Shown here piece by piece: positions 5,428 through 34,417 of a stretch of DNA of 34,692 bases. This DNA comes from a virus: IMG/VR virus record IMGVR_UViG_3300047388_000390, positions 1 through 34,692 of that record, one strand, 5' to 3'. Position numbers and translations under genes: made by a program. The notes below the pieces were generated by a model that saw only the letters and a list, made by a program, of their open reading frames with translations, was not told the origin of the DNA and searched no databases. How positions within the stretch are numbered: position 1 is the first letter of the stretch; each line of letters begins with the position of its first letter.

Positions 5428-6669
5428 TCATCCGGCCTCCATGAGTCGTCGGCCGATCCATTCGGCGACGGTGGATGTGACGGCGTCACCGAGCGCGGCG
5501 TAGCGTCGGCTGTCGGGTGTCCCTCCGAGGTCCGTCCAACCGTCGGGGAGCGCCTGGAGGCGCTCGCACTCGGTCGGGGTGAGACGGCGAACGGAGGCGC
5601 CTGCGACGTGCGGGATCGAGTTGATCGAGCGCCCGCGGTCGGTTCCCATGCCGCCGGCCTGGAGCGCCATCGCCACCTCATCCTCGGTGGAGTTGCGAAA
5701 GTCCACCGAGACGAGGTTCGGGTCGTCTTCGCTGCGTCTGCCGACCCCGTCGTTGCCACCGCCGAGCGGCCCTGCGATGTAGTTCGTGTTGTGACCTTGG
5801 CCGACACCACCGGGGTCTTTCCGGAGCGCGTAGGCGACGAGGTTGACGTCGTCTTCCTGCCGCCGTCCGGGTTGGTTGACGCCCTGGCCGATCGCGGATC
5901 CCTTCGTCAGCGGCGCAGCGATCAAAGCTGTCCTGTCTGGGTTGGCGTCCCAGCCGCGGTCGCCGCCAACGCTTGCTCCAAGTGTCGGGGCAACATCCGG
6001 CCCCGCTTCTCCGCGCGTCGCAGGATGCCGGTCGCAGCGCGTGCCGACAGCGAGTACCTGGCCGCAACGTTCTGCGGCGGCTCGAGGATCGCCGACAGCG
6101 AGGGCTCCGAGGATGAACACCCTTCTTCGTCGCTGCGGCACTCCGAAGTAACGGCTGTCGAGAACCCGCCATCCCACGCCGTACCCGATGTCGGCCAGCG
6201 TTCCAAGCACGACTCCGAAGTCCCGACCGCCGTTCGAGCTGAGGAGCCCGGGTACGTTCTCGACGAGTAGCCATCGGGGTCGAAGAGCGTCAGCGACCCG
6301 GGCGAACTCGTGGAAGAGCCCGGAGCGGCTGCCGGCGAGCCCTCGTCGTTGCCCGGCGACGCTAAGGTCCTGGCAGGGGAAGCCTCCGCAGAGGAGGTCA
6401 GAACGAGCGTCGCCGTTCTCGGCCCATGCCCGGCCGCGTCCACTGTCGGAGCCACTGAACTCTCTGCCCACGACTCCGGGCTCGGGTCGTCCTCGCCCGC
6501 CCGTCGCAACTTCGCGTACGTCCTCGTAGACGGGCACGCCGGGCCAGCGGGCGGCGAGGATGGCTCGCCGATACGGGTCGGACTCGCAGAAGAACAGATG
6601 GCGGTGTCCGGCCCGGTGGAGTCCGTGGTCGAGTCCGCCGATCCCGCTGAAGAGCGATCCGACATTCAC
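5428..6669 (-). CDS. dcm: C5-cytosine-specific DNA methyltransferase
   Basis: A 413-residue enzyme with the ordered motifs of m5C methylases: motif I LFSGIGGLD (6-14), motif IV GGFPCQDLS with catalytic Cys99, motif VI ENVPG (137-141), motif VIII QRRRRVF (179-185), a long target-recognition region (about 195-365), then RRLTPTECERLQALPDGW and LGDAVTS for motifs IX-X. It transfers methyl from SAM to cytosine C5. GTG 6669 is preceded by GGGAGGA. No cognate restriction endonuclease is visible, so it probably protects phage DNA from host restriction. The target region is rich in Gly/Asp/Arg and gives no specificity clue. Symbol by family. Confidence 0.88.
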   Translation of the reverse strand: MNVGSLFSGIGGLDHGLHRAGHRHLFFCESDPYRRAILAARWPGVPVYEDVREVATGGRGRPEPGVVGREFSGSDSGRGRAWAENGDARSDLLCGGFPCQDLSVAGQRRGLAGSRSGLFHEFARVADALRPRWLLVENVPGLLSSNGGRDFGVVLGTLADIGYGVGWRVLDSRYFGVPQRRRRVFILGALAVGDPRAAAERCGQVLAVGTRCDRHPATRGEAGPDVAPTLGASVGGDRGWDANPDRTALIAAPLTKGSAIGQGVNQPGRRQEDDVNLVAYALRKDPGGVGQGHNTNYIAGPLGGGNDGVGRRSEDDPNLVSVDFRNSTEDEVAMALQAGGMGTDRGRSINSIPHVAGASVRRLTPTECERLQALPDGWTDLGGTPDSRRYAALGDAVTSTVAEWIGRRLMEAG

Positions 6670-8372: not shown

Positions 8373-8584
8373 AGCAACGACACCTGCTTCGGCGACACAC
8401 CCGATTGCACGAGGGCGATGCAGCCGGAGTGGGCGAAGTCGGCGACGGACTCGCGGAGGACGATGTCTGATCCGCCCTTCCTGCTCTCGGCCAAGGCTTT
8501 GCGTTCCCAGCCGACGACACGCCGGTAGGTGTCGCGGGCGAGCGGGTCGACCGGCTCACCACAGAAATGACACGCGGACGTCAT
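8369..8584 (-). CDS. putative zinc-binding protein, 71 aa
   Basis: Begins MTSACHFCGEPVD (CxxC knuckle) and later has FAHSGCI, giving a possible C-C-H-C zinc site; between them is a basic helical insertion (WERKALAESRKGGSD). Similar small proteins are common in actinophage early regions and may relate to degenerate HNH or treble-clef folds. Start overlaps the MT-A70 stop and its own stop overlaps the next ATG. Confidence 0.55.
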   Translation of the reverse strand: MTSACHFCGEPVDPLARDTYRRVVGWERKALAESRKGGSDIVLRESVADFAHSGCIALVQSGVSPKQVSLL

Positions 8585-9126
8585 GCGCCAATCTCGACGT
8601 GCTCGAAGGCTTCGTTGCCCCAGGTGTCCCAGCCGAGCCGATTACGCCTCGCGAACATCTCTAAATACGGGCCTGGGCAGACGGTCTCGACAAGGTCAAG
8701 GAACGCCTCAGGCTTGACGCTGTGGCCTGAACGCGACCACTCCCACCAGTCACGCGAGACCTTGCCATACGTCTCAGGCTTGCCACGACGCCCGTAAAGG
8801 ACGAACTCGCAAGAGTTACCGAAAACGCCTCCGAGGCTAAACCCAGTTGGCGGCTTGCACCATACGAGCTGTTTGACGTAACGGAATCCCCATCTGTCGA
8901 GCACCTCGTGGCCGGTGATGAGATAACGCTGTGTAGTCCACAGGAACAGGTGCGCGTCCTCCGCGGCGAGATCACGTATGGGTAGGGCCGCGATTTCTTC
9001 ACTGCGCATCGTCGAGTAGTCAAGAAATGGTTCAGCCTCGCCGCTCGGTGTACCTTCGCGCCATGAAAAGCCGCCCCGCTGGTCGTAGAACCACGGCGGG
9101 TCAGCGACGATGGTGCGGTACTTCAC
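8581..9126 (-). CDS. MT-A70-family adenine N6-methyltransferase
   Basis: A 181-residue protein with the MT-A70 catalytic motif ADPPWFYD (residues 8-15), LFLWTTQRYL, VKQLVWCKPPTG, and a terminal AdoMet-binding strand PYLEMFARRNRLGWDTWGNE. The FAR-R-GWDTWGNE ending is the family hallmark. Phage members methylate adenine N6 in DNA and usually act without a partner nuclease, protecting phage DNA. GTG 9126 overlaps the preceding stop (GTGA). Length is normal for the phage form. Confidence 0.85.
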   Translation of the reverse strand: MKYRTIVADPPWFYDQRGGFSWREGTPSGEAEPFLDYSTMRSEEIAALPIRDLAAEDAHLFLWTTQRYLITGHEVLDRWGFRYVKQLVWCKPPTGFSLGGVFGNSCEFVLYGRRGKPETYGKVSRDWWEWSRSGHSVKPEAFLDLVETVCPGPYLEMFARRNRLGWDTWGNEAFEHVEIGA

Positions 9127-9385: not shown

Positions 9386-10456
9386 TTAATAATCCCTCTG
9401 GGCTTCCTCGACGAGCTTGAGCGCGGCCCGCAGGTCGTCTGCGCTCGGGTGCAGATATGCAGCCGTCGTCGCCGGTGATTGGTGGCGGAGCAGCAGCTGT
9501 GCGAGCACGATGTTCCCGGTGCGCCGCCAGATGTGATCGGCGGCGGTGTGCCGCAACTCGTGCATCTGGATCGTCTGCGGCAGGTCGGCCTTCGCGAGGC
9601 AGCGCTTGAACCAGCGATGAACCGATGACGGGTTCATCGGCGTGGTTCGGCGGTTCCTCGCGTACAGCAGATATTCGTCGCCTGGGTCGCCGCCGGCCTC
9701 GAGGCGGCGCTCGAGCCCATGGGTGCTGAGGTCGCTCGTGAGGTCGAGGAACACGATCGGGAGCTCCTGCCGTTTGCCGCCCTTCGCGTGGTTGAGCTGG
9801 ATCGTGTCGACGATCAGGTCGATGTCGCGGATCTGGAGCATGCGGACGTCGTTGCGGCGCAGCGCGAGCCGGAACAGCCCGAGGGCGCACCGGTCACGGA
9901 GCGATTCCTGCGCGTTGATGAGGCGGCTCACGATCTCCTGGTCGTAGGCGCGGCGCTCTTTCAGGTTCCTCGGCGCCTTGGGCTTGCGGATGCTGCGAAC
10001 CGGGTTGAACGGCAGATCGCCTTTCTCGACGCACCAGCCGCAGAACCCGTTCAGGATCCGGTAGCGCTGCGCCCGCGTGTTCTCCGACTTCGTCGCCCAG
10101 TTCATGTAGAGGAAGTCCTCGAGCAGTTCCGGTCGTTCGCAGAACTCCCCCACTCCGGCGAGGTCGTCGTGTGTGAGCGCCAACTTCGCGAGGACACCTT
10201 CATAGGCCTCGAACGAGTTGTCCATCATCCCGGCGTACTGCATCGCTCGCAGGTATCGCCAGACGGTCTGGCCGACCGGGCTCTCGCGGTAGCTTTTGTC
10301 TTTCACGTCAGCCTCGACGGCAGCGAGCAGCTGCCGGATCAGCGGGCCGACCGGTGTACCTTCTGGCGTGCATGGGAGCTGATACCTCCTGTGCCGTGCC
10401 CGGGCCGTTTCGGCGGTGCCGGGCTTTTTGTTGTCGGCCAGGATGGTACCGCTCAT
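9386..10456 (-). CDS. int: tyrosine recombinase / phage integrase
   Basis: A 356-residue protein with an N-terminal SAM-like core-binding domain (about 35-160) and a C-terminal catalytic domain. Visible catalytic residues: Arg in LALRRNDVRML (200/201), Lys in HAKGGKRQELP (225-228), HELRH (His299, Arg302), His325 in LLLRHQSPATT and Tyr334 in AAYLHP. It catalyses site-specific integration and, with a directionality factor, excision, so the phage is temperate. ATG 10456 overlaps the upstream 54-residue gene stop (ATGA), tying integrase translation to the repressor operon. Confidence 0.92.
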   Translation of the reverse strand: MSGTILADNKKPGTAETARARHRRYQLPCTPEGTPVGPLIRQLLAAVEADVKDKSYRESPVGQTVWRYLRAMQYAGMMDNSFEAYEGVLAKLALTHDDLAGVGEFCERPELLEDFLYMNWATKSENTRAQRYRILNGFCGWCVEKGDLPFNPVRSIRKPKAPRNLKERRAYDQEIVSRLINAQESLRDRCALGLFRLALRRNDVRMLQIRDIDLIVDTIQLNHAKGGKRQELPIVFLDLTSDLSTHGLERRLEAGGDPGDEYLLYARNRRTTPMNPSSVHRWFKRCLAKADLPQTIQMHELRHTAADHIWRRTGNIVLAQLLLRHQSPATTAAYLHPSADDLRAALKLVEEAQRDY

Positions 10457-10617
10457 GTGGCGAGCTCCTCGAGCCGGTCGAGCGCGGCGAGCGCCTGACG
10501 GCACGCCTGCCGGACCTCCTCGTCGCCGGCGAGCTCGGCTCGGTCGGCGAGGTACAGGAGGGCGGCGCGGACGGTCTTCGCTTCGGCCACGACGAACGCT
10601 TCGCGGACGACGCTCAC
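10453..10617 (-). CDS. 54-residue helical protein between repressor and integrase
   Basis: GTG 10617 overlaps the repressor TAG by one base (TAGTG) and its TGA overlaps the integrase ATG (ATGA). The protein begins MSVVREAFVVAEAKTVRAAL and is a nearly continuous Ala/Glu/Leu/Arg amphipathic helix pair, with high third-position GC. The exact fit between two genes makes it convincing despite its size. Possible roles are a repressor partner or a coupling leader; no family recognised. Confidence 0.6.
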   Translation of the reverse strand: MSVVREAFVVAEAKTVRAALLYLADRAELAGDEEVRQACRQALAALDRLEELAT

Positions 10618-12756: not shown

Positions 12757-13668
12757 TCACGGCTCGTCGACCCTAACGAACACCGTCCCTTGCCTTGCCG
12801 CGCTGCGCTGCTTGCGGCAGACCGCGCCGCCGTTCGATTGGTCGCCGCGGTCGTCGGAGGCGGTGTTCCCTTCGACCGCGCTAAACGAGGCTGGCGCCCC
12901 GCTCTCGAAGATCCCGACGTGGTCGAAGGTGCCGTCCTGACCCCAGTCGTAGCAGACGAGGTCGCCGGGGACGGGGCTGTTGGTGAGGGTGAGCCCGTTG
13001 GTGGCTTTGGCGGCGTCCGCGACAATGTACGGGACGTACGCGTAGCGGCTGCCGCGGGCGAACGACGGTGAGCCGCCGGCCTCGACTTCGTAGCAGTAGG
13101 TGACGAACATGGCGCACCACGGGTTCCGGTCGAGTGAGTACCACGAACCGAACTGGGTTTGGTTCGACCCGGCGGGGCTCTCGGTGTAGCCGATCCACCC
13201 AGCGGCCCCATCGAGCGCCTGCTCCCGGACGGTCGCCCTCGCGGCGGGTTTCGGGTGGAACAGCGCGTACGCCTCCGCGATCAGGTTCTGGGCGTTCGCG
13301 TCCATGCACATCTCCCCCGCGTGCGGCTTGCCTTCCGGGACGCGGAGGGAGCGGAGGGTGTTGAACATCTCCTGGGTGATGGCGCCGTCGTCGGGCATGT
13401 TCTGCTGCCGCTGCACCCCAGCGATCCCGGTGTCGATGACGTTGGGGCCGCACCCGTACGCGAAGCCGTCCGAGTAGGTGTTGTCGAACCGGGATGCGGG
13501 GCCCTGCCAGCGGCCGGCACGCCACACGGTGCGTTTGTAGGCGAGCACGTCACTTCCGTCGGGCATCGGCTTCCCGGCGTTCCGATCCGACGGGTAGAGC
13601 TCGCGGGGGAAGCCGGGGACGGGCACCATGGGGCCGCCCTTGTACGGGGTCTGCCACCATTCGCTCAT
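12757..13668 (-). CDS. endolysin: PG-binding-like plus CHAP domain
   Basis: 303 residues from ATG 13668, which overlaps the PKD gene stop (ATGA). The middle part (about 75-112: VIDTGIAGVQRQQN, DDGAITQEMFNTLRSL) resembles PG_binding_1. The C-terminal half is a CHAP amidase/endopeptidase: NPWCAMFVTYCYE with catalytic Cys185, VPGDLVCYDWG, and FDHVGIFES with catalytic His250. CHAP enzymes cut peptide bonds in peptidoglycan. A distinctive N-terminal region (GFPRELYPSDRNAGKPMPDG) may form a separate small domain. No signal peptide, so release needs a holin. Confidence 0.82.
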   Translation of the reverse strand: MSEWWQTPYKGGPMVPVPGFPRELYPSDRNAGKPMPDGSDVLAYKRTVWRAGRWQGPASRFDNTYSDGFAYGCGPNVIDTGIAGVQRQQNMPDDGAITQEMFNTLRSLRVPEGKPHAGEMCMDANAQNLIAEAYALFHPKPAARATVREQALDGAAGWIGYTESPAGSNQTQFGSWYSLDRNPWCAMFVTYCYEVEAGGSPSFARGSRYAYVPYIVADAAKATNGLTLTNSPVPGDLVCYDWGQDGTFDHVGIFESGAPASFSAVEGNTASDDRGDQSNGGAVCRKQRSAARQGTVFVRVDEP

Positions 13669-14483
13669 ACGAAGTCGACGCGGATCACGCCGCCGCCTTC
13701 GTCGGTGACGACGAGCCGGTTGCCCCACTTGATCTTCGTGAGTGTCCCCGACGGGTTCGCGACGGCCACGTAGCCGGTCCTGGTTTTTGTGTTCGACCCG
13801 GCCGCGTTCGTCGCGACGAGGACGACGGTGTAGGTGCCGACGGTCGTGTAGCTGTGGGTCGGGTTCTGGGAGGTTGAGGTGCCGCCGTCGCCGAACGTCC
13901 ACGCCCAGCTCGTCGGGGTGTTCGTCGAGCTGTCGGTGAACGCGACGCTGAGCGGCCAGATGCCAGTCAGCGGGGTACCTGTGAAATCCGCGACCGGGGT
14001 CGTGGCGGCGGCCCCGGTCACCGCCCACACGCTGAGGAGGCCGGTCGAGGGGCCAAAATCGGTCGTGCCGTACGGGTCGCTCGGCGGCGAGACGGTGGTG
14101 CCGCCGAGGATCGCTTTCAGGGTGCCGGTCGAGGCGTCCTCGCGGACGTCGCCCTGCGCGTTGGTGAACGAGACGCCGAGCCAGTAGTCGCCCGCCGCGA
14201 GCGCGGTCGAGAACCCGGACTGGCTGATCTCGACGACCGCCGGCCCGCCTGCCTGCACGATCGAGCTCGTGTACGCGACCCGGGCGCCCGGGGAGCCGGA
14301 GCTGTCCGCGTAGATGTGAATCGTGTAGGTGTTGCCGCCGCCGCCGGCCGAGCCGGGGTAAACCCAGGCGTGGAGCTCTTGCAGCGTCTGCGCGCTCGCA
14401 AGCGTGAACTTGGTAGACGCCTTGCGTCCGGCGGCAGCGCTGAAGGTGCCGCCGCCCTGGACGTTGTTGCCGAGGATCGCCAT
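13665..14483 (-). CDS. tail-fibre/virion-surface protein with PKD domain
   Basis: 272 residues. Residues 1-150 are a beta-rich lectin-like or jelly-roll region (IHIYADSSGSPGARVAYTSS, AGDYWLGVSF). Residues about 160-240 form a PKD (Ig-like) domain with its signature (PLSVAFTDSSTNTPTSWAWT, FGDGGTSTSQNPTHSY, TVVLVATNAAGS). The C-terminus KIKWGNRLVVTDEGGGVIRVDFV-like strand (cut here for length) resembles the N-terminus of the collagen-like fibre gene next to it. Such proteins bind polysaccharides or other surface ligands. Located after the minor tail genes. Confidence 0.68.
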   Translation of the reverse strand: MAILGNNVQGGGTFSAAAGRKASTKFTLASAQTLQELHAWVYPGSAGGGGNTYTIHIYADSSGSPGARVAYTSSIVQAGGPAVVEISQSGFSTALAAGDYWLGVSFTNAQGDVREDASTGTLKAILGGTTVSPPSDPYGTTDFGPSTGLLSVWAVTGAAATTPVADFTGTPLTGIWPLSVAFTDSSTNTPTSWAWTFGDGGTSTSQNPTHSYTTVGTYTVVLVATNAAGSNTKTRTGYVAVANPSGTLTKIKWGNRLVVTDEGGGVIRVDFV

Positions 14484-15272
14484 CTACACGTCCTCCCACA
14501 GCAGCGAGCCTGCTGCGGTAGCCCACTTGACACCCAGACTCTGGGTGCTGTCAGCGGTGAGTACCTGGCCGTTCGTGCCGACCGGGAGCCTGGAGAAGTT
14601 GTTCGCGCTCGGGGCGACGATCAGGTCGCCCTTCGTGGTGGCGACGTTCTTCAGGACCGCCTGCCGGGACTTCCAGACGCTTGAGCCGGCGTCCCAGTAC
14701 AGGACGTCCTCGTCGGCTGGCGTGGGTGCGGTGACGTCGCCGATGTCGTCGAGGTGCGCGACGGTCGCCGACGGTGTCGTCCAGCCGCCAACGCCGTTCA
14801 AGTAGTGGCCGCTGTTCCCGTCGGTGTTGACCTTGAGCGTGTCGCTCGCAATCGCGATCGTTGTCCCGTCCACGTTCACGGAGAGCACATCGCTGGCCTC
14901 TGAGAGCCCCGCTCCGGCGACAGACGCTGCTATCCCGGGGTTGGGGTAGTTGCCGTCGAGGGCGCCGCCTGCGGCCCCTGTTGGCGCGCCGCCGCCGCCC
15001 GAGACGGTTGACCAGTGGGTGTCGTAGTCGGTGCCGCTGACCTTCGTCAGTGCCTGCCCGCTGCTGCCACCTGTGGGAACGCCGGGGCCGGCGGGTCCTG
15101 TTGCGCCTGTAGCTCCGGTCGGCCCTGCGGGTCCTGTGGGGCCTGCCGGCCCGGTGCCGCCCCCGCCCCCGCCGCCGCCACCGTCGACGGTGATCACGCT
15201 CGGGTCGACGCTGTCGGGGGTGACGGTGAACCCCGAGCCCCAGATGATCTTCGAGAACTTCGTGGTCGGCAT
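14484..15272 (-). CDS. collagen-like tail-fibre protein
   Basis: 262 residues: N-terminal KIIWGSGFTVT beta module (6-17), nine consecutive glycines (31-39), Gly-X-Y triplets at 40-65 (TGPAGPTGPAGPTGATGATG), then a repetitive beta-rich shaft (LSVNVDGTTIAIASDTLKVN; DDIGDVTAPTPADEDVLYWD; RLPVGTNGQVLTADS) like many phage fibre tips. Trimeric collagen segments act as rigid stalks. Its stop abuts the PKD gene start. Likely a distal tail fibre involved in adsorption. Confidence 0.75.
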   Translation of the reverse strand: MPTTKFSKIIWGSGFTVTPDSVDPSVITVDGGGGGGGGGTGPAGPTGPAGPTGATGATGPAGPGVPTGGSSGQALTKVSGTDYDTHWSTVSGGGGAPTGAAGGALDGNYPNPGIAASVAGAGLSEASDVLSVNVDGTTIAIASDTLKVNTDGNSGHYLNGVGGWTTPSATVAHLDDIGDVTAPTPADEDVLYWDAGSSVWKSRQAVLKNVATTKGDLIVAPSANNFSRLPVGTNGQVLTADSTQSLGVKWATAAGSLLWEDV

Positions 15273-20937: not shown

Positions 20938-21369
20938 TTAAGTTGGTGCGACGGTGCCCCAGGTCCAGACGGCCCCGGGTGCTGGCTTGAACGTGACGGT
21001 CATCTGCGCATCCGCGCCCAACGCGCCGGAGAGACCGTTGTAGTCGTACAACATCGCCGACCCCCCGAACGCCGGGTTCGTTGCGCTCACCGACCCGGAT
21101 GTCGGGGTCGTGTACATGACGAACACCGACCCGCCCGCGTAGAGCGGGTAGAGGGTGGCGTGGACGCTGTTGGCCGCGAAGTCCGACCGGAACTGGACGG
21201 TGATCGTCTGGTCGGCGATCCCGGGGAGGAATTCGCTGCTATGGGCCGGGTTGAACCCACTCACGTCGATCTGTGGTTTCGCCTCGGGCGTGTCGATGTT
21301 GAAGGCGTAGTTGGAGAGATCCTTGGCCCCGACCACCACCCTCAACTCCTGCAACAGGAACTTGCTCAT
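20938..21369 (-). CDS. major tail (tube) protein
   Basis: 143 residues from ATG 21369, whose ATGA overlaps the GT2 stop; AAAGGGG lies just upstream. The sequence is beta-rich (VVVGAKDLSNYAFNI, EFLPGIADQTITVQFRSDF, AGGSVFVMYTTPTS, QMTVTFKPAPG), matching short actinophage tail-tube proteins. Position before gp10-like, chaperone and tape measure genes agrees. A tube protein of this size is small but complete in form. Translational coupling to a glycosyltransferase suggests it may be the glycosylated substrate (inference). Confidence 0.7.
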   Translation of the reverse strand: MSKFLLQELRVVVGAKDLSNYAFNIDTPEAKPQIDVSGFNPAHSSEFLPGIADQTITVQFRSDFAANSVHATLYPLYAGGSVFVMYTTPTSGSVSATNPAFGGSAMLYDYNGLSGALGADAQMTVTFKPAPGAVWTWGTVAPT

Positions 21370-22007
21370 CGTGTAACCCCTTTCATCACCAGGGCGCGTA
21401 CCCGCTCCTGGTATCGCTGTTGGTTTGCTCTGGCTGCCGCGTCGGTTGCCTGGTTTGTGTGTGGGGTGCCGGCGGTCGCGCCGACCCGGTGGAGCAGACC
21501 GACCTCGGTCTGCCGCAACGTGAAGCCTCGGGCGCGGGCCTCGAGGCAGAGGAGGTTGTCCGAGAAGTAGGCGGGCTCCTCCAGCGACGTGTCGAACCCG
21601 CCGAGCTCGAGGAGGTCTTCGCGGAGGCCGGCGAGGCACCACCCGTCGATGTAGGGGTAGACGCGCCCGTCGACCTGCGTGTGCGCGTCGGAGCGGATCC
21701 GAGCGCCGACGAGCACGGACGGCCGGGCGGCGTCTTGGAGCTCCTGGAGCCAGCCGTGCTCGGTCGCGGCGATGTCGTTGTTCAGGAAGACGACGACGTC
21801 GCTCGTCGCCGCATCGAGGCCCTGGTTGGAGGCTTTGCAGAAGCCGAGGTTCTCGTCGTTGCGGATCGCGGCGAACCCCAGCGGGGGCGCGGAGCCGTTG
21901 TCGACGATCAGGAGCTCGTCCGGCCACGGGCCGAGCTCGAGCGCACGATCGTAGTCGGGCTGCAGCTCGAGGTGCTGGTGCCACGGCGTGACGACGGCCA
22001 CCGTCAT
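21366..22007 (-). CDS. GT2-family glycosyltransferase in the tail operon
   Basis: 213 residues with GT-A features: start TVAVVTPWH, donor-binding ELLIVDNGSAPP (31-42), IRNDENLGFCKASNQGLDAA (the rhamnosyltransferase-like loop), metal site VFLNNDIA (73-80, NND as DXD), and LGGFDTSLEEPAYFSDN with acceptor-site acidic residues. Such enzymes transfer rhamnose, glucose or related sugars. It sits between another glycosyltransferase and the major tail protein with ATGA overlaps on both sides, so it is expressed late with virion genes. Confidence 0.85.
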   Translation of the reverse strand: MTVAVVTPWHQHLELQPDYDRALELGPWPDELLIVDNGSAPPLGFAAIRNDENLGFCKASNQGLDAATSDVVVFLNNDIAATEHGWLQELQDAARPSVLVGARIRSDAHTQVDGRVYPYIDGWCLAGLREDLLELGGFDTSLEEPAYFSDNLLCLEARARGFTLRQTEVGLLHRVGATAGTPHTNQATDAAARANQQRYQERVRALVMKGVTR

Positions 22008-23209
22008 CTGCCGCTCCTCGCGAGCGCGCTCCGGAGCTCCTGCTGCGCGAGCGGCGCAACCTCACGCGGCCGGTCTAGCGCCTCGAGCGTCGGCACCCAG
22101 TAGGAGCTTGTGACGAGGTCGGCGTCGTAGAGGTCGGCGAACGCAGACGCGCCGGCGCGGAGCTCCTGGTCGTCGCGGGCCTCGTAGGCGGCCTCCAACG
22201 CCCCGTAGATCGACCTGACCGACGGGACGATCAGGAACGAGTCCTGTAGCGCGTCCCACCACGGGTCGCCCTGCACCAGCCACCCGGCCTGGGTGAGTTC
22301 GGTCATCGCGGAGTGGTCGGACGCGATGACGGGGCAGCCGCACGCCTGCGCCTCCAGGATCGGGATCCCGAACCCCTCGCCCATCGATGGGTTCAACAGG
22401 ACGTCGAAGGCCTGGTAGAGATTCGAGACGAGCTCTGTGGGGGCGCCGAGATGCCAGACGCTCGCGGGCGGGAACTTGACCCTGTCGGTGGGGCAGCGCG
22501 TCGCGAGCGTGAGCTTCTCGAGGCTGATCCCGCTCCCCTCCGGCGGCTCGGCTTCGCTGTGGACATAGAGCCACGCGTCGTCGTGCTCGGCCGCGAAACG
22601 CGAGAACGCGAGTAGCGCCTGCGGAAACGCCTTTCGGGGCAGCATCGGACTCGCGGTGTTCGCGGCGACCATCCCGACCAGGAACACCCCGGCGGGGATC
22701 CCGAGCTCGGCACGGATCGCGTCACGGTCCTGCGGGCGCGGGTTGAACACGGTGCGGTCAACGCCATGGGGGACGTACAAGGGGTCGAGGCCGCAGTCGG
22801 CCATCAACGTCTCCCCGAACCGGCTCATCGCGATCGGCCGCACCTTCTCGTGCGCCAACGTCGCGAGGACGGCGGGCGGGATCGGGTAGTGGTCGACCGG
22901 CGCCCACACCGCGACCCTGATCTCGTCGGGCCACTGGTCTGGTCTGAGCACCCACGCGTCACAGAGCGCGATCACGTGGTCGGCCCGGAAGTGGTTCGCG
23001 TACGTGCCGAGTACCCTGTTGCCCCACTGGTTGTCGGACGGGTAGTACGTGAGGGGGCCAGCGTCGATCGTCATGCCCTGCACGCCCCAGTTGCACTGGA
23101 CGGCGAGCTCGTGCCCCAGCGCCATGAGCCGGGGCACGAACAGCGCCGCTTGCTCGCCGTACCCTGACCGCACCCCGGGCGGATTCCCGAGCCAAAGGAT
23201 CCTGCTCAC
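22004..23209 (-). CDS. GT-B (GT4/GT1-type) glycosyltransferase in the tail operon
   Basis: 401 residues from GTG 23209, which overlaps the tail-terminator stop (GTGA). N-terminal Rossmann domain begins ILWLGNPPGVRSGYGEQ with the Gly-rich donor/acceptor loop; the C-terminal domain has VHSEAEPPEG, then NPSMGEGFGIPILEAQACGC with the E-x7-E pair (Glu278, Glu286) typical of retaining GT4 enzymes, and CPVIASDHSAM. No signal or membrane helix, so it acts in the cytoplasm. With the adjoining GT2 it likely builds a sugar chain on a virion protein. An in-frame start 9 codons upstream is less likely. Confidence 0.85.
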   Translation of the reverse strand: MSRILWLGNPPGVRSGYGEQAALFVPRLMALGHELAVQCNWGVQGMTIDAGPLTYYPSDNQWGNRVLGTYANHFRADHVIALCDAWVLRPDQWPDEIRVAVWAPVDHYPIPPAVLATLAHEKVRPIAMSRFGETLMADCGLDPLYVPHGVDRTVFNPRPQDRDAIRAELGIPAGVFLVGMVAANTASPMLPRKAFPQALLAFSRFAAEHDDAWLYVHSEAEPPEGSGISLEKLTLATRCPTDRVKFPPASVWHLGAPTELVSNLYQAFDVLLNPSMGEGFGIPILEAQACGCPVIASDHSAMTELTQAGWLVQGDPWWDALQDSFLIVPSVRSIYGALEAAYEARDDQELRAGASAFADLYDADLVTSSYWVPTLEALDRPREVAPLAQQELRSALARSGR

Positions 23210-23221
23210 AGCAGGATCCTT
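23195..23221. promoter_or_regulatory. 12-bp perfect hairpin around the GT start codon
   Basis: AAGGATCCTGCT (23195-23206) and its exact complement (23210-23221) enclose just 3 nt, the GTG start of the glycosyltransferase, whose stop-start GTGA lies at the apex. The folded mRNA would hide the start codon until ribosomes translating the tail terminator open it. No T-run, so not a terminator. Confidence 0.6.
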
Positions 23222-23664
23222 GTCCGCCACTCGCACCCGACCAAGTAGCCCTCGTTCTGGATCGGGCTGTACGCGATGATCCCGGTCGGCGTCGGGTCCG
23301 GGAACCCGAGCTCCTGGACGAGACCGCCCAGCGTCCGGTCGGACGCGATCGCCGCGAGCACCGACGTGTCGGCGCGCGGGTCCATCAGCTGGTACAGCAG
23401 CGTGAAGGTGGCGTCGACGTCCGCGGGGGCGACGCGGGCCCTGACCGTGAAGAACACGTCGCGCTCACGAACGACCCCGAACGCGAGCGCCGTCGAGAAC
23501 GGGTCAGCGGGGTAGATGTCGATGCACGGCGGCGTCGGGTTGAGGACGAGGAACGGCCATACCTGCAATGCCTCCCCGCCGAGATCGGCGGTGGCGACGT
23601 TGTCGGTGATCTGGTCGGCGAGCGCCTCCACGATCTCAACCAGTGACGCGACCACGGTTGCCAT
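23206..23664 (-). CDS. tail terminator protein
   Basis: 152 residues matching the actinophage tail-terminator pattern: N-terminal helix VEIVEALADQITDN, VWPFLVLNPTPPCIDIYPAD, FFTVRARVAPADVDATFTLLYQLMDP-like strand-helix (shortened here), and a final strand EGYLVGCEWRTRILL. This hexameric protein caps the tail tube and joins it to the head. It follows the head-tail adaptor by one nt and overlaps the glycosyltransferase. Confidence 0.68.
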   Translation of the reverse strand: MATVVASLVEIVEALADQITDNVATADLGGEALQVWPFLVLNPTPPCIDIYPADPFSTALAFGVVRERDVFFTVRARVAPADVDATFTLLYQLMDPRADTSVLAAIASDRTLGGLVQELGFPDPTPTGIIAYSPIQNEGYLVGCEWRTRILL

Positions 23665-23665
23665 C

Positions 23666-24289
23666 TCAGGAAATCCCCCATTGTTCTTTCAAGGGCGCGA
23701 GCTTGAGCGCGTGTCGCTCAAAGGTGTCGCGGCCGACGACGACGGCACCGACGGCGTTCTCCCAGATCCCGTACGGCACCTCCTCCTGCTGCCAGTGCTC
23801 GACGGCCCGCTCGAGCGTGACCTCGGTGGCGAGCATGAGTTGCCAGGGGGCGAGGGGATCGATGCGGTCGATCTCGCTGTTCACCTCGCCCGACGCAGCT
23901 GTGAGCACTCTTTCCAGTGCGGCGGTCTGGTCGGCGGTGGGGGCGCGGAGCTTGAGGATCCGGGCGAGCTCGTCGGTGGTGCCGTACACGTCGCTGGTGA
24001 CGGTCGATCCGGCGGTGTTCTGGACGGGCGTGGTGGGTTGGCTGACGTCCCCGTCGAGGTCAGCGAAGATGACGCGGTACCAGTAGCCAACGTCGGTGCC
24101 GAGCTGAGTCGTGAACGAGCGGGCGGCGGGGTGCGCCGGGTCAGTGTCGAGCGGCGACAGCGCGATCGTCTCGAGGTGCGCGTACGTGCCGGTCTCGGTC
24201 GCGGCCTCCTCGATCCGCACCTCCGTCCACGGCAGCTGATCGAATCGTTCCGGGGGCCGGTAGCCGACGAACGAGACAACCTCGCCCAT
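23666..24289 (-). CDS. head-tail adaptor with N-terminal FN3-like domain
   Basis: 207 residues. Residues about 8-95 look like a fibronectin-III/Ig-type beta sandwich (WTEVRIEEAATETGTYAHLE, GYWYRVIFADLDGDVSQPT). Residues 100-207 are the helical adaptor (YGTTDELARILKLRAPTADQ, TLERAVEHWQQEEVPYGIWE), similar to HK97 gp6-like connectors. The adaptor binds the portal ring. An N-terminal FN3 fusion is uncommon and may project from the neck. Overlaps the repeat-protein stop by one nt. Confidence 0.65.
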   Translation of the reverse strand: MGEVVSFVGYRPPERFDQLPWTEVRIEEAATETGTYAHLETIALSPLDTDPAHPAARSFTTQLGTDVGYWYRVIFADLDGDVSQPTTPVQNTAGSTVTSDVYGTTDELARILKLRAPTADQTAALERVLTAASGEVNSEIDRIDPLAPWQLMLATEVTLERAVEHWQQEEVPYGIWENAVGAVVVGRDTFERHALKLAPLKEQWGIS

Positions 24290-25830
24290 CAGCGGCCTGC
24301 CTTCGCGAGTTCGCCGGTGCCAGCGTGGCTGAGTTCGCCTGCGGCACCGGCGGTGATCCGTCCCGGCCAGGTGGCGGGAAACGCGGGGATAGCGGCGAAC
24401 CCGCCGCTGGTCGCGGTCGCGTACTCTCCCCGGTCGGGATGGTCGATCCTGCCGATCCCGGTGAACACGACGCCGCCCCGCTGCGGGTTGAGGATCCAGC
24501 CCGGGTCGAGCCGGATCGTGGTCGTTGCGTCCGTGTGGAGGGTCGCGTATAGGGCGACGGTCGCGGCGCCTACCGCTGCCCGGCCGCCACCGCTCGTGAT
24601 GGTGACGTGCTCCGACGCGGCGGCCTGTCCGTAGTGGACGCGGGCGCCGAGCGTGATGATGGCGACGGTCTGGTGGACGCTGCTCGCCGCGAATGTCTGC
24701 CGTCGCCCGGCGGTCGTAGTGGCCGCTGTCTCAACGACCGCAGCCTGCCCGAACGTTTTGCGACTTCCGGTGGTCGTAACGCTGTCGGTGACGGTGACGG
24801 TCGCGGAGCCGAACCGGGTCGGGTGCGTGGCGGTGCCGGCGCTGGTGACGGTGACCGTTTCGGCGACCGTCGAGCTCGAGGTTGTTCGGCGCCGCCCGGC
24901 TGTCGTGACGGCGGCGGTCAGCGCGACAGTGGTAGCGCCGATCGCTTTCCGCACCCCGGCAGTGGTGGCGGGCACGGTGAGCGTGACCGTTGAGGCCGCG
25001 AACGTTTCCCGCACGGCGGCGGTCGCGACGGAGACGAGCACGGCGGCCGTGGAGGCCGCCTTTGCCGTGAGCCTGCCGGCGGTCGTGCGCACGTCGGTCA
25101 GCGGAACGGCGGTCGCAACGAACGTTCTGCGGGTGCCGGAGGTCGTGCGGACGTCGGTGAGTGCGACGGTCGCGGCACCGAGATAGGTGACGGGGCCGCC
25201 GGTGCCGGTGCCGGCGGTCGTGACGGTGACGGTCTCGCCGGTCGCGCTCGCGGCTTTCGAGGTGAGCCGCCCGCCGGTCGTGCGGGAGTCGATGAGCGCG
25301 ACCGTGCTCGACGTGAGCGCCTTGCGGGTGCCGACGGTGACAACTGACACGGTCTCGCCGACCGTGGCGGCGGTGCGGGCAGTGAGCCGACTGGCGGTTG
25401 TCCGCTGATCGGTGAGCGCAGCAGTGGCGGCAGCCCTCGCGGTGAGACGCCCTAGCGTCGTGACCGTGCCGGTGAGCCCGACCGTTGCCGACGACGTGGT
25501 CTTGCGAGTGCCGGCGCTGCTGCGAACGTTTGTGAGCGCCACGGTGGCGCCGCCGAACGTTTTGCGTGCTGCCGCGATCGTGACCGTGGCGGTGAGCACG
25601 ACGGTGGACACACCGAGCGCTTTCCGGGCGCCGCTGGTCGTGACGGTGCCGGTGAGCCCGACCGCAGAGACCGCGAACGTCCCGCGGACGCCGGCGGTCG
25701 TCAGGCTGTCCGTGACCTGGACGGTCGCGGCACCGGTCCAGGTGGTCGGGCCGGCCTTGGCCGGAAGGTACGACCGCGACCCGGGCCCGCCCAGCCTGGG
25801 TTGCGGCACCGCCCGGGTCGTCTGGCTCAT
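24289..25830 (-). CDS. repeat-rich virion protein with about twenty 20-residue repeats
   Basis: 513 residues. From about residue 30 to 436 it is built of about twenty degenerate repeats of 19-21 residues (a few with Gly/Thr insertions), pattern R-K/L-x-F-x-x-x-T-V-x-L-T-x-x-V-T-T-x-G, e.g. RKALGVSTVVLTATVTIAAA, RKTFGGATVALTNVRSSAGT. Thr/Val/Ala-rich with one Arg at each start, they suggest a beta-solenoid or stacked-hairpin fibre. A 77-residue non-repeat C-terminus (WILNPQRGGVVFTGIGRIDH...) follows. It lies in the head block between decoration-like genes and the adaptor. Family not recognised; role as head or neck fibre is inferred. Confidence 0.7.
   Translation of the reverse strand: MSQTTRAVPQPRLGGPGSRSYLPAKAGPTTWTGAATVQVTDSLTTAGVRGTFAVSAVGLTGTVTTSGARKALGVSTVVLTATVTIAAARKTFGGATVALTNVRSSAGTRKTTSSATVGLTGTVTTLGRLTARAAATAALTDQRTTASRLTARTAATVGETVSVVTVGTRKALTSSTVALIDSRTTGGRLTSKAASATGETVTVTTAGTGTGGPVTYLGAATVALTDVRTTSGTRRTFVATAVPLTDVRTTAGRLTAKAASTAAVLVSVATAAVRETFAASTVTLTVPATTAGVRKAIGATTVALTAAVTTAGRRRTTSSSTVAETVTVTSAGTATHPTRFGSATVTVTDSVTTTGSRKTFGQAAVVETAATTTAGRRQTFAASSVHQTVAIITLGARVHYGQAAASEHVTITSGGGRAAVGAATVALYATLHTDATTTIRLDPGWILNPQRGGVVFTGIGRIDHPDRGEYATATSGGFAAIPAFPATWPGRITAGAAGELSHAGTGELAKAGR
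24523..25743 (-). repeat. about 20 tandem 60-bp coding repeats
   Basis: The 1.2-kb DNA encoding the repeats shows recurring GTG-ACG-GTC words (plus strand) with about 60-bp period. Units are diverged, so they are ancient or selected at the protein level rather than recent slippage. Confidence 0.75.
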
Positions 25831-25831
25831 C

Positions 25832-26272
25832 TCACTCGATCCACTTCATGTAGACGTCCAGGATCTGGCCGGTGCCGGTGGGGCAGTAGACGCCGATCCC
25901 GTTCGCGGCGGCCGGTATCACGGTGAGCTCCCACGGCTGGAACGTCCAGATCACCCCGGAGCCGATCGCGGCCCCGAGTGACCAGCGGTAGCCGAGGTCG
26001 GTGAGCGTCGGCCCGGTCGATGTGTGTGACTGGACGGCGGTGCAGGTCGGGAGCACGCTCGACTGGTCGAGGTTGGCCTCGGTCAGACCGGTGCCCTGCG
26101 TCCCGGCGCTCGTCAGGCGGCATAGCCCGACGACGCAGGCGACGGCGGTGGTGTTCGTGATCCCGATCTCGAGCATCGAGAAGTTGATGGTCGCGGTCGC
26201 GTACAGGCTGATCGCCGGCAGGGTGGCGGTGGGGGCGTTGGTGGTTCTCGCGCCTACGGCGTAGACAGCCAT
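25832..26272 (-). CDS. putative virion protein, 146 aa
   Basis: Begins MAVYAVGARTTNAPTATLPA; the whole protein is beta-rich with alternating hydrophobics (ISLYATATINFSMLEIGI, GAAIGSGVIWTFQPWELTVI, LDVYMKWIE). Such compact beta-sandwich proteins occur near capsid genes of soil actinophages. No catalytic motif. One nt separates it from the repeat protein start. Decoration or minor capsid role is inferred from position. Confidence 0.55.
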   Translation of the reverse strand: MAVYAVGARTTNAPTATLPAISLYATATINFSMLEIGITNTTAVACVVGLCRLTSAGTQGTGLTEANLDQSSVLPTCTAVQSHTSTGPTLTDLGYRWSLGAAIGSGVIWTFQPWELTVIPAAANGIGVYCPTGTGQILDVYMKWIE

Positions 26273-26284
26273 CCGCTTCTCCTT

Positions 26285-26971
26285 CTAAGTGACGGTAAGG
26301 GCCATGCCAACGTCCGGGATCGCGGCGGCGGCGGCGGCCTTGAAACTGGCGACTGCAAGCGCTAGAGAAGAAAGGCTGCTACTGGTGTCCGACTGGCTGG
26401 TCTGATCGGCAGCCGAGTTTCCGGTTGTTGCACCCCACGCGAAACGGTAGTGGTTGCCGGTAGTACTGGTCGCGTCATTGTTCAGGTTGCTGGTCGGAGT
26501 TGCGCCGTTGTTATAAGTGTCGGCGGTCGTTGTGGATGCCGACATGCTGAGGGCGTGACCACCGCACGTCACGAAGAGCTGACCGCTAGCAACATCAGCA
26601 GCGGAACATGCGCCAACGACTGGTGACACAGAACCGGAATTGTTCCCTACCTTGTCCAGTGGCGAGACGGTGGCGCCGCCCGAGAACTCGGCGAGAGCCG
26701 CCCACATCGTTGTGACACTGGCCGTGAAGGTTGGTGCAGTCTCACCCGCCGAACAGTTCGGTTTGTAGAAAATAGCCGGGCGGACTCCGGTCGTAGTGTT
26801 GGATGCTGCGGAAGACCAGCCAGGCGATGTTGTAGTGGCCGCGGCGCTTCCTGCTGCCATTACCCAAGCGATCAGGAGGTTCCCCGCCGTTGTCGCTTGC
26901 GCGAACGCTGGGGTGAGAGTGCTACCCGCGGTCGCGACGGTGCCGACGTTCCCGACGAGCGCGTACGCCAT
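26285..26971 (-). CDS. putative virion protein, Ser/Thr/Ala-rich beta-sandwich, 228 aa
   Basis: Begins MAYALVGNVGTVATAGSTLT and reads as a jelly-roll/lectin-like domain with many short strands (AGNLLIAWVMAAGSAAATTT, GQLFVTCGGHALSMSAST). Third-position GC is visibly lower here than in the flanking genes, and the codon mix differs, hinting at recent acquisition. Similar modules occur as surface-exposed phage proteins. Probable capsid decoration; no family assigned. Confidence 0.55.
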   Translation of the reverse strand: MAYALVGNVGTVATAGSTLTPAFAQATTAGNLLIAWVMAAGSAAATTTSPGWSSAASNTTTGVRPAIFYKPNCSAGETAPTFTASVTTMWAALAEFSGGATVSPLDKVGNNSGSVSPVVGACSAADVASGQLFVTCGGHALSMSASTTTADTYNNGATPTSNLNNDATSTTGNHYRFAWGATTGNSAADQTSQSDTSSSLSSLALAVASFKAAAAAAIPDVGMALTVT

Positions 26972-26972
26972 C

Positions 26973-27347
26973 TCAGACTGTACTCGCCTCTAGCTCCACG
27001 TACGTGAAGAGGTCGGAGCCGCAGCAGGTATTGAACTCCGGGGTCACCGGTGTATCCAGCTCGGATTCCGGGAACCGTCCTTTCGCGACGAGTACCTGTA
27101 GATGGTCGTGATCCTCGATCAGGGTTCCGTCCGCGAGAGTCGAGCCGATCATGCAGTCGCCACGGTGGTCGCATGTGCCGTGAACTTCCCACCGTCGGCC
27201 GTTCGACGCGCGGTACCGAACGAACCCGGAGCGCTGCTCCTCGATCCAGATGTCCGGGTCAATGGTCGGGGTGAGCATGGCCGACTCGTACAGCTCGCGC
27301 GGAACCGAGTCGGACGTGGTGTTGACGGTGTAACCGACGCTCGCCAT
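26973..27347 (-). CDS. hypothetical head-region protein, 124 aa
   Basis: Contains WIEEQRSGFVRYRASNGRRW, EVHGTCDHRGDCMIGSTL, HDHLQVL and FNTCCGSDLFTYVELEAS: four cysteines and several His/Asp residues could form a metal site or disulfides. No known family recognised. Located between the head-fibre-like gene and the beta-sandwich gene with 1-5 nt spacings, so co-transcribed with structural genes. Confidence 0.5.
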   Translation of the reverse strand: MASVGYTVNTTSDSVPRELYESAMLTPTIDPDIWIEEQRSGFVRYRASNGRRWEVHGTCDHRGDCMIGSTLADGTLIEDHDHLQVLVAKGRFPESELDTPVTPEFNTCCGSDLFTYVELEASTV

Positions 27348-27352
27348 CAGCC

Positions 27353-27745
27353 CTAGGCGGCCACCGGGGTCACCGCGACCGTCAGCGACCCGATCGGGAT
27401 CGTGAAGTTATCCCCGACCGCGACAGTCCTGGGGGTGTTGAGGTCATCCGAGCCGAGGAACGTCCCCGCGCTCGACGCGGTCCAGAAACTGACGTGCGAG
27501 TAGGTTTCGGCGTTCGGGACGTTCGTCCAGTTCAGATCCGCCGTGGTAGTCGACGACCCGCCGGACGCGGACCCGAACGTCGCCTGCACCCGCGTCGTGT
27601 TCGCCGCCGGGCTCGTCGCCCCGGCCGAGCCAGGGTCGCCGAGATGGAGCTTCACGTAGAACGCGACGGGGGCGGTGTAGTTCGTGCCTTTGCAGAGCGC
27701 GTCGAGCCAGCCGTTCAGAACCGCTGCTGCGAGTCCGATCGCCAT
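27353..27745 (-). CDS. head-fibre / tail-fibre-like family protein, 130 aa
   Basis: Matches the pattern of the phage family often annotated as tail-fibre or head-fibre protein: helix AAAVLNGWLDALCKGTNYTA, then PVAFYVKLHLGDPGSAGATS, RVQATFGSASGGSSTTTADL, YSHVSFWTASSAGTFLGS and DNFTIPIGSLTVAV. It immediately follows the major capsid gene, supporting a capsid-associated role. Confidence 0.6.
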   Translation of the reverse strand: MAIGLAAAVLNGWLDALCKGTNYTAPVAFYVKLHLGDPGSAGATSPAANTTRVQATFGSASGGSSTTTADLNWTNVPNAETYSHVSFWTASSAGTFLGSDDLNTPRTVAVGDNFTIPIGSLTVAVTPVAA

Positions 27746-32815: not shown

Positions 32816-33252
32816 GGCCTGGCCGCCCTACGCGCCTGGCGCTTCCCCGCCAACTCGTCCAAACCATCAGCGACGACCAGCGGCGGCGCCGACTCCTCGC
32901 TTGCCCGCAGCGCCGGCCTGCCCCACCGGTCCGGGTACTGCCGCTCAAGCAGCCACGCCGCCGCCTGCCAGTTCTCCCCGGCGGCCTGCGCGATCCTGTC
33001 GATCCCGCGAACCTCGGCCTCCGCCCGAGCCACCTCGACCTGGTCGCGCACCTCGGCCGGGAGCCGCTCGAGCGGAACACCGGCGGCCCGCGCCGCTACC
33101 TCGAGGTAGTTCCCGGCGCGAAGCATCGACACCAGCGTCGCCACGAGCTCGGGCGGCAACTCGTCGCGGTGCGCGAAGCAGCGGTCGCTACCCGCCATCA
33201 CCCGCGCCCGGCATGGTGTGCCGCGCTTCGTCGTTGCGTTACAAGTCGGCAC
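32812..33252 (-). CDS. terS: terminase small subunit with zinc-finger-like N-terminus
   Basis: 146 residues from GTG 33252. Residues 4-30 contain C-x7-C-x10-C-x2-H (CNATTKRGTPC, RCFAH), a Cys/His knuckle. A helix-turn-helix follows (AGNYLEVAARAAGVPLERL), then a helix with IAQAAGENWQAAAWLLERQY PDRWGR, the ending typical of actinophage TerS. It recognises cos/pac DNA and recruits TerL. It overlaps the methyltransferase by 14 nt and TerL by 4 nt. Confidence 0.78.
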   Translation of the reverse strand: MPTCNATTKRGTPCRARVMAGSDRCFAHRDELPPELVATLVSMLRAGNYLEVAARAAGVPLERLPAEVRDQVEVARAEAEVRGIDRIAQAAGENWQAAAWLLERQYPDRWGRPALRASEESAPPLVVADGLDELAGKRQARRAARP

Positions 33253-34417
33253 GCTCCGCCTTCCCGCCCGTGTGCCGTTCCCAACGGTCGACGATCACGT
33301 CGCAGTAGCCAGGGTCGATCTCGAGCGCATAACAGACGCGCCCGGCTTCCTCGGCGGCAATCACAGTCGACCCCGACCCCGCAAACAGGTCGAGCACCGT
33401 CGGCGCGTCATGGTTGAGAAGAGCCCGCACGCTTAGCTCGATCGGCTTCTGCGTCGGGTGAAGATCATTGACCGCAGCACGATCGATATCCCAGACCGTG
33501 ACCTCGTTCGTCGGTCCGCACCAGTTGACGGTACGGCCACGCTTGAAGCAGTAGTAACACGGCTCGTGCTTCTGCTTGTACTGGGCACTGAGAGCGCCGT
33601 ATTGAGCCTGGTTCTTGTTCCAGACGATCTCGCAACGAATCTGGTAACCAGCGGCAGCGGCAGCGGCAGCGGCAGCGGCAGCGATCCCCTTGACACCCGC
33701 GTGCCACAGGTACAGCGGCGCGTCTCTACTCGAGAACAGAAACCCCATCTCGCAGGCAGGCCCGTAGAGCCCCGTCGAATGGTCACCCGCGAGCCGCTCC
33801 CGCACCTTCGTCCCACCGTCGTACGCAACGCCGTAAGGCGGGTCGGTGAAGACCATGCTCGCCAGCTCCCCGCCCATCAGTCGCGCGACCTGATCGGTAT
33901 CAGTGGCATCCCCGCAGAGAAGACGATGCGGGCCTAGATGCCAGAGGTCACCCGCCTTGCTAGTCGGCTCAGCCGGTAGCGGCCCCGCGTCGGTATCACG
34001 AAGATCCCTGCCGCGCTCGAGGCTAGCGAGCAGCGCGGCGAAGTCATTGGCGGCCCAACCGGTGCCGACGTAGTCCTGCTCGAGCGAGATGAGTAGTTCG
34101 GCGAGCTCGGCGTCGTCGTAGCCAGCGAGATCCGCCGTCCGGTTATCGGCAAGCACGATCCGCGCCGCCTCCTCGTCATCGACGTCGACGAACGTCGCGG
34201 CGATCATCGACCAGCCCAGCTCGACCGCAGCCGCCAACGTGTGGTTCCCCGCCAACACCTCGCTAGTGCGGCGGTTCACCACGATCGGCCGATACTGGCC
34301 GTTCACCTCCAGCGACCGGCGGATCGCCGCCACATCACCACGCCGCGGGTTCCTGCCGTACGGCCTAATCGAGGCGATCGACACCTCAAGACCGGTAAGC
34401 GTCTCCGCGATCACCAC
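33239..34417 (-). CDS. ParB-domain / DNA methyltransferase fusion
   Basis: 392 residues. Residues 1-115 are a ParB/sulfiredoxin-type domain (VSIASIRPYGRNPRRGD, VNRRTSEVLAGNHTLAAAVE, IVLADNRTAD). Residues 155-392 are a beta-class amino-methyltransferase: motif IV FTDPPYGVAYD (DPPY 192-195), HPTQKPIELS (320 on), and SAM motif DLFAGSGSTVIAAEEAG (343 on), in the DPPY-before-FxGxG order, methylating adenine N6 or cytosine N4. An 11-Ala run at 246-256 interrupts the target region. Such fusions are common in phages next to terminase and often modify DNA without a nuclease partner. Confidence 0.88.
   Translation of the reverse strand: MVIAETLTGLEVSIASIRPYGRNPRRGDVAAIRRSLEVNGQYRPIVVNRRTSEVLAGNHTLAAAVELGWSMIAATFVDVDDEEAARIVLADNRTADLAGYDDAELAELLISLEQDYVGTGWAANDFAALLASLERGRDLRDTDAGPLPAEPTSKAGDLWHLGPHRLLCGDATDTDQVARLMGGELASMVFTDPPYGVAYDGGTKVRERLAGDHSTGLYGPACEMGFLFSSRDAPLYLWHAGVKGIAAAAAAAAAAAGYQIRCEIVWNKNQAQYGALSAQYKQKHEPCYYCFKRGRTVNWCGPTNEVTVWDIDRAAVNDLHPTQKPIELSVRALLNHDAPTVLDLFAGSGSTVIAAEEAGRVCYALEIDPGYCDVIVDRWERHTGGKAERADL
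33651..33683. repeat. hexanucleotide microsatellite (GCGGCA)5 inside the methyltransferase
   Basis: Five uninterrupted GCGGCA units plus GCG. On the coding strand it alternates GCT/GCC alanine codons, producing an 11-Ala run. Unit gain or loss would change length by two Ala without breaking the frame. Confidence 0.85.

What the first reader, a model, noticed from the sequence alone, without database searches (positions are those of the whole stretch)
24289..25830. Head-region protein with about twenty 20-residue repeats
Residues 30-436 are an almost uninterrupted array of Thr/Val-rich 20-residue units starting with Arg, a pattern I do not recognise from known phage fibres. The regular period suggests a novel beta-solenoid or stacked-hairpin rod near the head or neck. 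The many Thr/Ser residues would also suit O-glycosylation by the phage's own enzymes.
Basis: partly seen in the sequence, partly recalled or inferred. Interest (0 to 1): 0.68.

Follow-up and report, generated by a model that had tools for sequence, protein, structure and literature searches.

The report
Repeat fibre docked at phage neck
This uncultivated soil phage carries a gene for a long protein built from twenty copies of a 20-residue unit; comparison with about 80 related viral sequences suggests it is a swappable fibre that plugs into a dedicated docking domain on the head-tail connector ring, a fibre system found here only in uncultivated phages.

Summary
ORF 24289-25830 lies on the minus strand (513 aa) and holds 20 units of exactly 20 residues (residues 29-436; autocorrelation z = 11.8). 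Neither Pfam, PHROGs nor the PDB matches it. 24 further viral contigs carry the same repeat family, always just downstream of a gp80-type fibre gene. The strongest result came from the next gene, the head-tail adaptor, whose N-terminal 93 residues are an extra domain. Across 78 distinct adaptor cores, 44 of 47 adaptors with this domain have a protein with ~20-residue repeats just upstream (often of unrelated sequence), against 0 of 31 without it; seven well-supported independent tree contrasts all agree. 46 of 51 such upstream proteins end in a GxPhi...GxPhi tail. The window's adaptor is a mosaic: docking domain 90% identical to a repeat-bearing phage, core 75% identical to one without the domain. 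Best explanation: a neck fibre whose repeats form a beta stalk, anchored by its C-terminal tail to the adaptor domain. Anchoring is inferred; the fold is unresolved (AlphaFold pLDDT about 52). Glycosylation by the phage's own transferases is not supported by co-occurrence. It works like, but is not, the lactococcal neck passage structure.

The parts
24289..25830 (-). Gene for the 513-aa repeat fibre protein (REP)
   Evidence: ORF; dN/dS 0.54-0.58 against orthologues L017/L018
25747..25830 (-). REP residues 1-28: short N-terminal segment before the repeats; in relatives this place can hold a jelly-roll-like or LamG-like domain (L019, L023, L030, L022, L025)
   Evidence: domain labels by eye
24523..25746 (-). 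REP residues 29-436: 20 units of 20 residues. Hydrophobic residues at positions 9/11/13/15, Thr/Ser at 8/12/14/16/17, Gly at 19, basic at 1
24292..24522 (-). REP residues 437-513: C-terminal tail with GxPhi motifs (GRI...GEL...GEL), proposed anchor
   Evidence: 46 of 51 upstream proteins carry the motif (shuffled mean 21, max 31);
24011..24289 (-). Adaptor residues 1-93: proposed docking domain, found with repeat proteins directly upstream
   Evidence: Start codon overlaps the REP stop (TGATG)
23666..24010 (-). Head-tail adaptor core (Ad1-like) and stop codon
   Evidence: phrog_137 head-tail adaptor Ad1, weak (window E 0.053, best relative 0.0055); gene order before the tail terminator
25832..26272 (-). 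146-aa cassette protein, 89% identical to one next to REP in L017; also relatives in L032/L033
26285..26971 (-). 228-aa cassette protein, possibly jelly-roll-like. Its last residues (IPDVGMALTVT) are identical to those of an otherwise different 412-aa protein in L017
   Evidence: sequence; weak match to L026 protein (E 0.04), which matches minor-tail PHROG 553
26973..27347 (-). 124-aa cassette protein, no known relative
27353..27745 (-). gp80-type fibre protein at the head of the cassette
   Evidence: PF23140 E 1.2e-26; PDB 8JOU chain a E 7e-9; phrog_240 E 5e-29

Best explanation
The gene encodes the stalk of a neck fibre. The 20-residue units form an elongated beta-rich rod, probably in an oligomer. 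The C-terminal GxPhi tail anchors it to the extra N-terminal domain of the head-tail adaptor, so that copies radiate from the connector ring. Distal N-terminal or partner domains (jelly-roll, LamG-like, lyase in relatives, and the gp80-type protein) touch the cell surface or its polysaccharides as an accessory adhesin. Docking domain and fibre gene are exchanged together as a cassette. Shown: the repeat array; its conserved place in the cassette; the strict link with the adaptor domain; the C-terminal motif; the mosaic adaptor gene. Inferred: beta rod, oligomer, physical tail-to-adaptor contact, adhesion.
For: Same repeat family just downstream of gp80 in 24 of 61 gp80 contigs with at least 2.5 kb downstream, all on the same strand. 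Adaptor N-domain present in 47 of 78 distinct adaptors: 44 of these have a ~20-residue-periodic protein upstream, against 0 of 31 without it. At least 7 starred independent pairs all agree, p = 0.016. In a sample ascertained on the adaptor core alone: 22/27 against 0/29. Many of the periodic proteins have unrelated sequences but keep the period (18-22) and the C-terminal motif. Window adaptor: N-domain 90% identical to L018 with core 57%; core 75% identical to L230, which lacks the N-domain. Stop/start overlap TGATG couples the two genes. gp80 matches a chain of the GP4 virion structure. Alternating hydrophobic/Thr positions in the unit. REP evolves faster than gp80 (dN/dS 0.54-0.58 against 0.14-0.20), as expected for an exposed part.
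Against: No virion proteomics or structure. Neighbouring genes are inherited together, so linkage alone may explain part of the association. Adaptor identity rests on weak PHROG matches and gene order. Gene position does not prove virion position: gp80 homologues in mycobacteriophages lie among minor tail genes. The AlphaFold models are poor (pLDDT 52). No isolated phage found here carries the docking domain.
Confidence: 0.6

Rival explanations
1. REP is a fibre or spike stalk, but part of the tail-tip or capsid decoration. The adaptor domain is merely co-inherited with it by hitch-hiking in the same recombination block.
For: gp80 homologues of mycobacteriophages lie in the minor-tail cluster after the tape measure gene. 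The genes are adjacent, so one crossover moves both.
Against: The adaptor breakpoint falls between N-domain and core, so only the domain travels with the fibre gene. No periodic protein upstream of any of 31 adaptors lacking the domain. A different N-domain type (L008, L211, L230) goes with a different upstream gene.
Confidence: 0.2
2. REP is a mucin-like, glycosylated brush on the neck (or head) that shields the virion; its Thr/Ser are decorated by the phage's two glycosyltransferases.
For: Thr/Ser fill several unit positions (up to 84%); GT4 and GT2 genes lie nearby.
Against: GT4 in 1 of 13 REP-bearing and 4 of 7 REP-lacking records. Strict 20-residue spacing with an alternating hydrophobic face and Gly19 argues for a folded rod rather than a disordered mucin.
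Confidence: 0.1
3. Low-complexity repeat expansion with little function.
For: T/A/V-rich composition; units homogenise within a protein (within-protein identity above between-protein in all 15).
Against: Conserved period over 15 diverged proteins and 216 units; dN/dS below 1; family-wide tail and neighbour domain.
Confidence: 0.05

Closest known systems
Neck passage structure (NPS) of lactococcal 936/P335 siphophages (PMC6669499)
   Same: Optional fibre protein at the neck of siphophages; swappable carbohydrate-binding or pectin/alginate-lyase-like ends; proposed accessory adhesin; TP901-1 NPS reported as expressed with the capsid and proposed to attach to the portal.
   Different: NPS is anchored by an N-terminal BppU-like beta-sandwich and has a trimeric coiled-coil stalk. 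Here the stalk is 20-residue beta-type repeats, the common motif is C-terminal, and the adaptor itself carries the linked domain.
Podophage GP4 tail fibres (PDB 8JOU; Pfam PF23140 'fiber I protein gp80'; J Mol Biol 2023;435:168258, cited in PMC13243795)
   Same: The first gene of the cassette encodes a gp80-type protein.
   Different: GP4 is a podophage; no relative of REP was found in 8JOU or any PDB entry.
LSH1 gp34-36 module (PMC13243795)
   Same: Optional co-occurring module of a lyase-like payload, a protein matching 8JOU_g and an Ig-like protein, modelled as payload on a fibril.
   Different: Encoded downstream of the lysis genes; no 20-residue repeats or adaptor domain described in the passages read.
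T4 fibritin (wac) whiskers (from general knowledge, not tested)
   Same: Fibres at the phage neck.
   Different: Coiled-coil trimer; unrelated sequence.

Membership tests
Lactococcal-type neck passage structure protein | N-terminal BppU-like beta-sandwich anchor | tested here: inconclusive
   No Pfam or PHROG match anywhere in REP; N-terminus before the repeats is only 28 residues, too short for the ~130-residue domain. No profile-profile comparison against BppU was run
Lactococcal-type neck passage structure protein | Trimeric coiled-coil stalk | tested here: not met
   All-beta periodic stalk, no helix in the AlphaFold models, which are of low confidence
Lactococcal-type neck passage structure protein | Location at the head-tail connector in virions | not testable with these tools
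   Gene order and adaptor-domain linkage only
Pfam PF23140 (GP4 fiber I, gp80), for the neighbour gene 27353-27745 | Match above curated cut-off | tested here: met
   93.9 bits against cut-off 27, 8-123 of 130 aa
PHROG 19041 'virion structural protein' | Profile match | tested here: not met
   Relatives L024 (7.6e-9) and L020 (9.4e-8) match; the window protein does not at E up to 1
Known beta-solenoid / triple beta-spiral families | Sequence or fold match to a solved structure | tested here: inconclusive
   No sequence match; Foldseek with a low-confidence model gave nothing significant

The most novel reading that the evidence does not exclude
A general plug-and-socket system for phage neck fibres: the head-tail adaptor carries an exchangeable N-terminal socket domain. 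Each socket type goes with its own fibre class. The socket found here accepts many unrelated fibres that share only a ~20-residue structural period and a C-terminal GxPhi plug.
Probability: 0.45. Interest if true: 0.75.

Novelty: new variant of a known kind. Interest (0 to 1): 0.62.

Why it matters
Neck appendages are among the least understood parts of siphophages. A strict, repeatedly evolved pairing of an adaptor domain with fibres of unrelated sequence would explain how phages swap neck fibres without disturbing the connector. It would give a sequence marker for finding such fibres in uncultivated phages, and it raises a sharp structural question: why is the ~20-residue period kept while the sequence is not?

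Tried and rejected
Single-sequence searches with the repeat protein found no relatives in viral contigs or isolated phages: its makeup defeats tblastn filters and exact seeds; the gp80 neighbour was used instead. No match in 397 actinobacterial genomes nor in 7 named phage or bacterial records with gp80; neither search had a positive control in the set. Only three bacterial genomes gave gp80 relatives. AlphaFold: full protein with 14 homologues (pLDDT 52.6, pTM 0.41) and a gapless 6-unit, 19-row alignment (51.5, 0.37); a first 69-row alignment was discarded because MAFFT slid overlapping copies. Fold searches gave nothing significant. My first reading that the adaptor domain occurs only with THIS repeat family was wrong: 43 of 69 independently fetched loci lack it; most of them hold a different repeat protein in the same slot. 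FN3-like character of the adaptor domain was considered by eye but not supported by Pfam or PDB.

Full report
WHAT IS THERE. The window is one IMG/VR virus record of 34,692 bases. Coordinates 24289-25830 hold a 513-aa ORF on the minus strand. Residues 29-436 are 20 units of 20 residues, with insertions of 5 and 3 residues; the lag-20 self-identity is 11.8 standard deviations above shuffles. Across 216 units from 15 proteins, position 19 is Gly in 90%, position 1 is charged in 62%, hydrophobic residues prevail at 4, 9, 11, 13 (58-73%; 48% at 15), and Thr/Ser at 8, 12, 14, 16, 17 (58-84%). This alternation is what an amphipathic beta strand looks like.

SURROUNDINGS. On the minus strand the order is terminase, portal, protease, major capsid, then gp80-like (27353-27745), 124 aa, 228 aa, 146 aa, REP, adaptor, tail terminator, two glycosyltransferases, tail proteins. 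The gp80-like protein matches PF23140 and PDB 8JOU chain a. Relatives close by terminase (74-80% identical: L003, L004, L007, L009, L010) lack the whole cassette, the capsid gene being followed directly by the adaptor. The cassette is therefore an exchangeable insertion. The window's gp80 is 95% identical to that of L017, whose major capsid protein is only 26% identical.

FAMILY. Scanning with gp80 and with a profile of the repeats found the repeat family in 24 of 61 gp80 contigs with at least 2.5 kb downstream, always downstream and on the same strand; none of the other viral-contig loci fetched by terminase held it. Some members carry an N-terminal domain before the repeats that looks jelly-roll-like or LamG-like by eye. 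Cassette partners include pectate-lyase-type spikes (L013, L020), a GHL15-type glycosyl hydrolase (L025) and minor-tail PHROG 553 proteins (L020, L026). This fits surface adhesion or depolymerisation.

THE ADAPTOR DOMAIN. The gene after REP, joined by a TGATG stop/start overlap, has an N-terminal 93-residue domain on top of the adaptor core. All detectable adaptors in REP loci had it; the seven terminase relatives did not. Fetching 80 loci by this domain alone showed REP in 26 of 69, so the domain is not tied to this family. But the ORF directly upstream in most of the rest is also a tandem-repeat protein, of period 18-22, with a different consensus (such as GFGTVGxVGAGxS, SGADVAEHSETGS, VGTxRKTISGTTA). 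46 of 51 non-redundant upstream proteins end in GxPhi-x(2-12)-GxPhi (shuffled mean 21, max 31; internal windows 18%). Fetching by the adaptor core alone gave 22 of 27 periodic upstream proteins with the domain and 0 of 29 without. On 78 distinct cores it is 44 of 47 against 0 of 31; in the subset found by core or terminase only, 10 of 13 against 0 of 31. The domain changes state at least 10 times on the best core tree, and all seven well-supported independent pairs agree (p = 0.016). Two of the three exceptions have only short open frames upstream and one falls just under the threshold.

MOSAIC. The window's adaptor N-domain is 90% identical to L018 while its core is 57% identical to the same phage; the core is 75% identical to L230, which has a different N-terminal domain. 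L008 and L211 resemble L230 there and have mutually similar upstream proteins. Thus the domain goes with the fibre, not with the core.

MECHANISM. The most economical reading is a socket on the connector ring and a plug on the fibre. REP's C-terminal tail docks on the adaptor domain, the repeats form the stalk, and variable domains or partner proteins do the binding. The docking contact, oligomeric state and adhesion are inferences. gp80 is optional: it lies upstream in 20 of the 69 loci.

FOLD. AlphaFold with homologues gives only strands, but with pLDDT 52 and pTM 0.4; one model has two strands per unit, the other one long strand per unit. This may mean that the fold needs an oligomer; it does not decide between solenoid, hairpin stack and triple spiral.

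GLYCOSYLATION. Several records are incomplete, so this weakens but does not exclude the idea.

COMPARISON. Functionally the nearest known thing is the neck passage structure of lactococcal phages (PMC6669499): an optional neck fibre with swappable carbohydrate-binding or lyase-like ends. The reported coiled-coil stalk was not met here and its BppU-like anchor was not found, so REP is not filed as an NPS. The system is a new variant of a known kind, neck fibres.

Noticed in passing
L008 14900-15718 and 15715-16344; L206, L211, L230: Adaptors with a second, different N-terminal domain (GLVGTLALGLLDNQG...YTLLWSLDG), preceded in L008/L206 and L211 by mutually similar ~270-aa proteins: possibly a second socket/fibre pair.
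   Followed up: partly
L024 10597-11103; L205 and L212 upstream of adaptor: An HNH-endonuclease-like ORF sits between the repeat gene and the adaptor, a likely homing element in the exchange hot spot.
   Followed up: no
L095, L097, L098 (mycobacteriophages Lumos, Bernardo, prophiGD54-2): gp80-family genes lie among minor tail genes after the tape measure, though PHROG 240 calls the family 'head protein'; the label may be misleading.
   Followed up: partly
window 22004-23236 and 21366-22007: GT4- and GT2-type glycosyltransferases between tail terminator and major tail protein; GT4 is also kept in relatives without the repeat fibre, so its target is more likely something else.
   Followed up: partly
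window 26285-26971 and L017 7394-8629: Two otherwise different cassette proteins end in the same peptide (IPDVGMALTVT), suggesting N-terminal domain swapping in the cassette.
   Followed up: no
window 14484-15272 and 13665-14483: Collagen-like GxY run and a PKD-like stretch (by eye) in the putative tail-tip genes, so the phage probably has other surface-binding proteins.
   Followed up: no
window 33239-34417, 5428-6669, 8581-9126, 9386-10504: By eye: ParB-fused DNA methylase, C5-methyltransferase, MT-A70-like methylase and a tyrosine integrase; probably a temperate phage.
   Followed up: no
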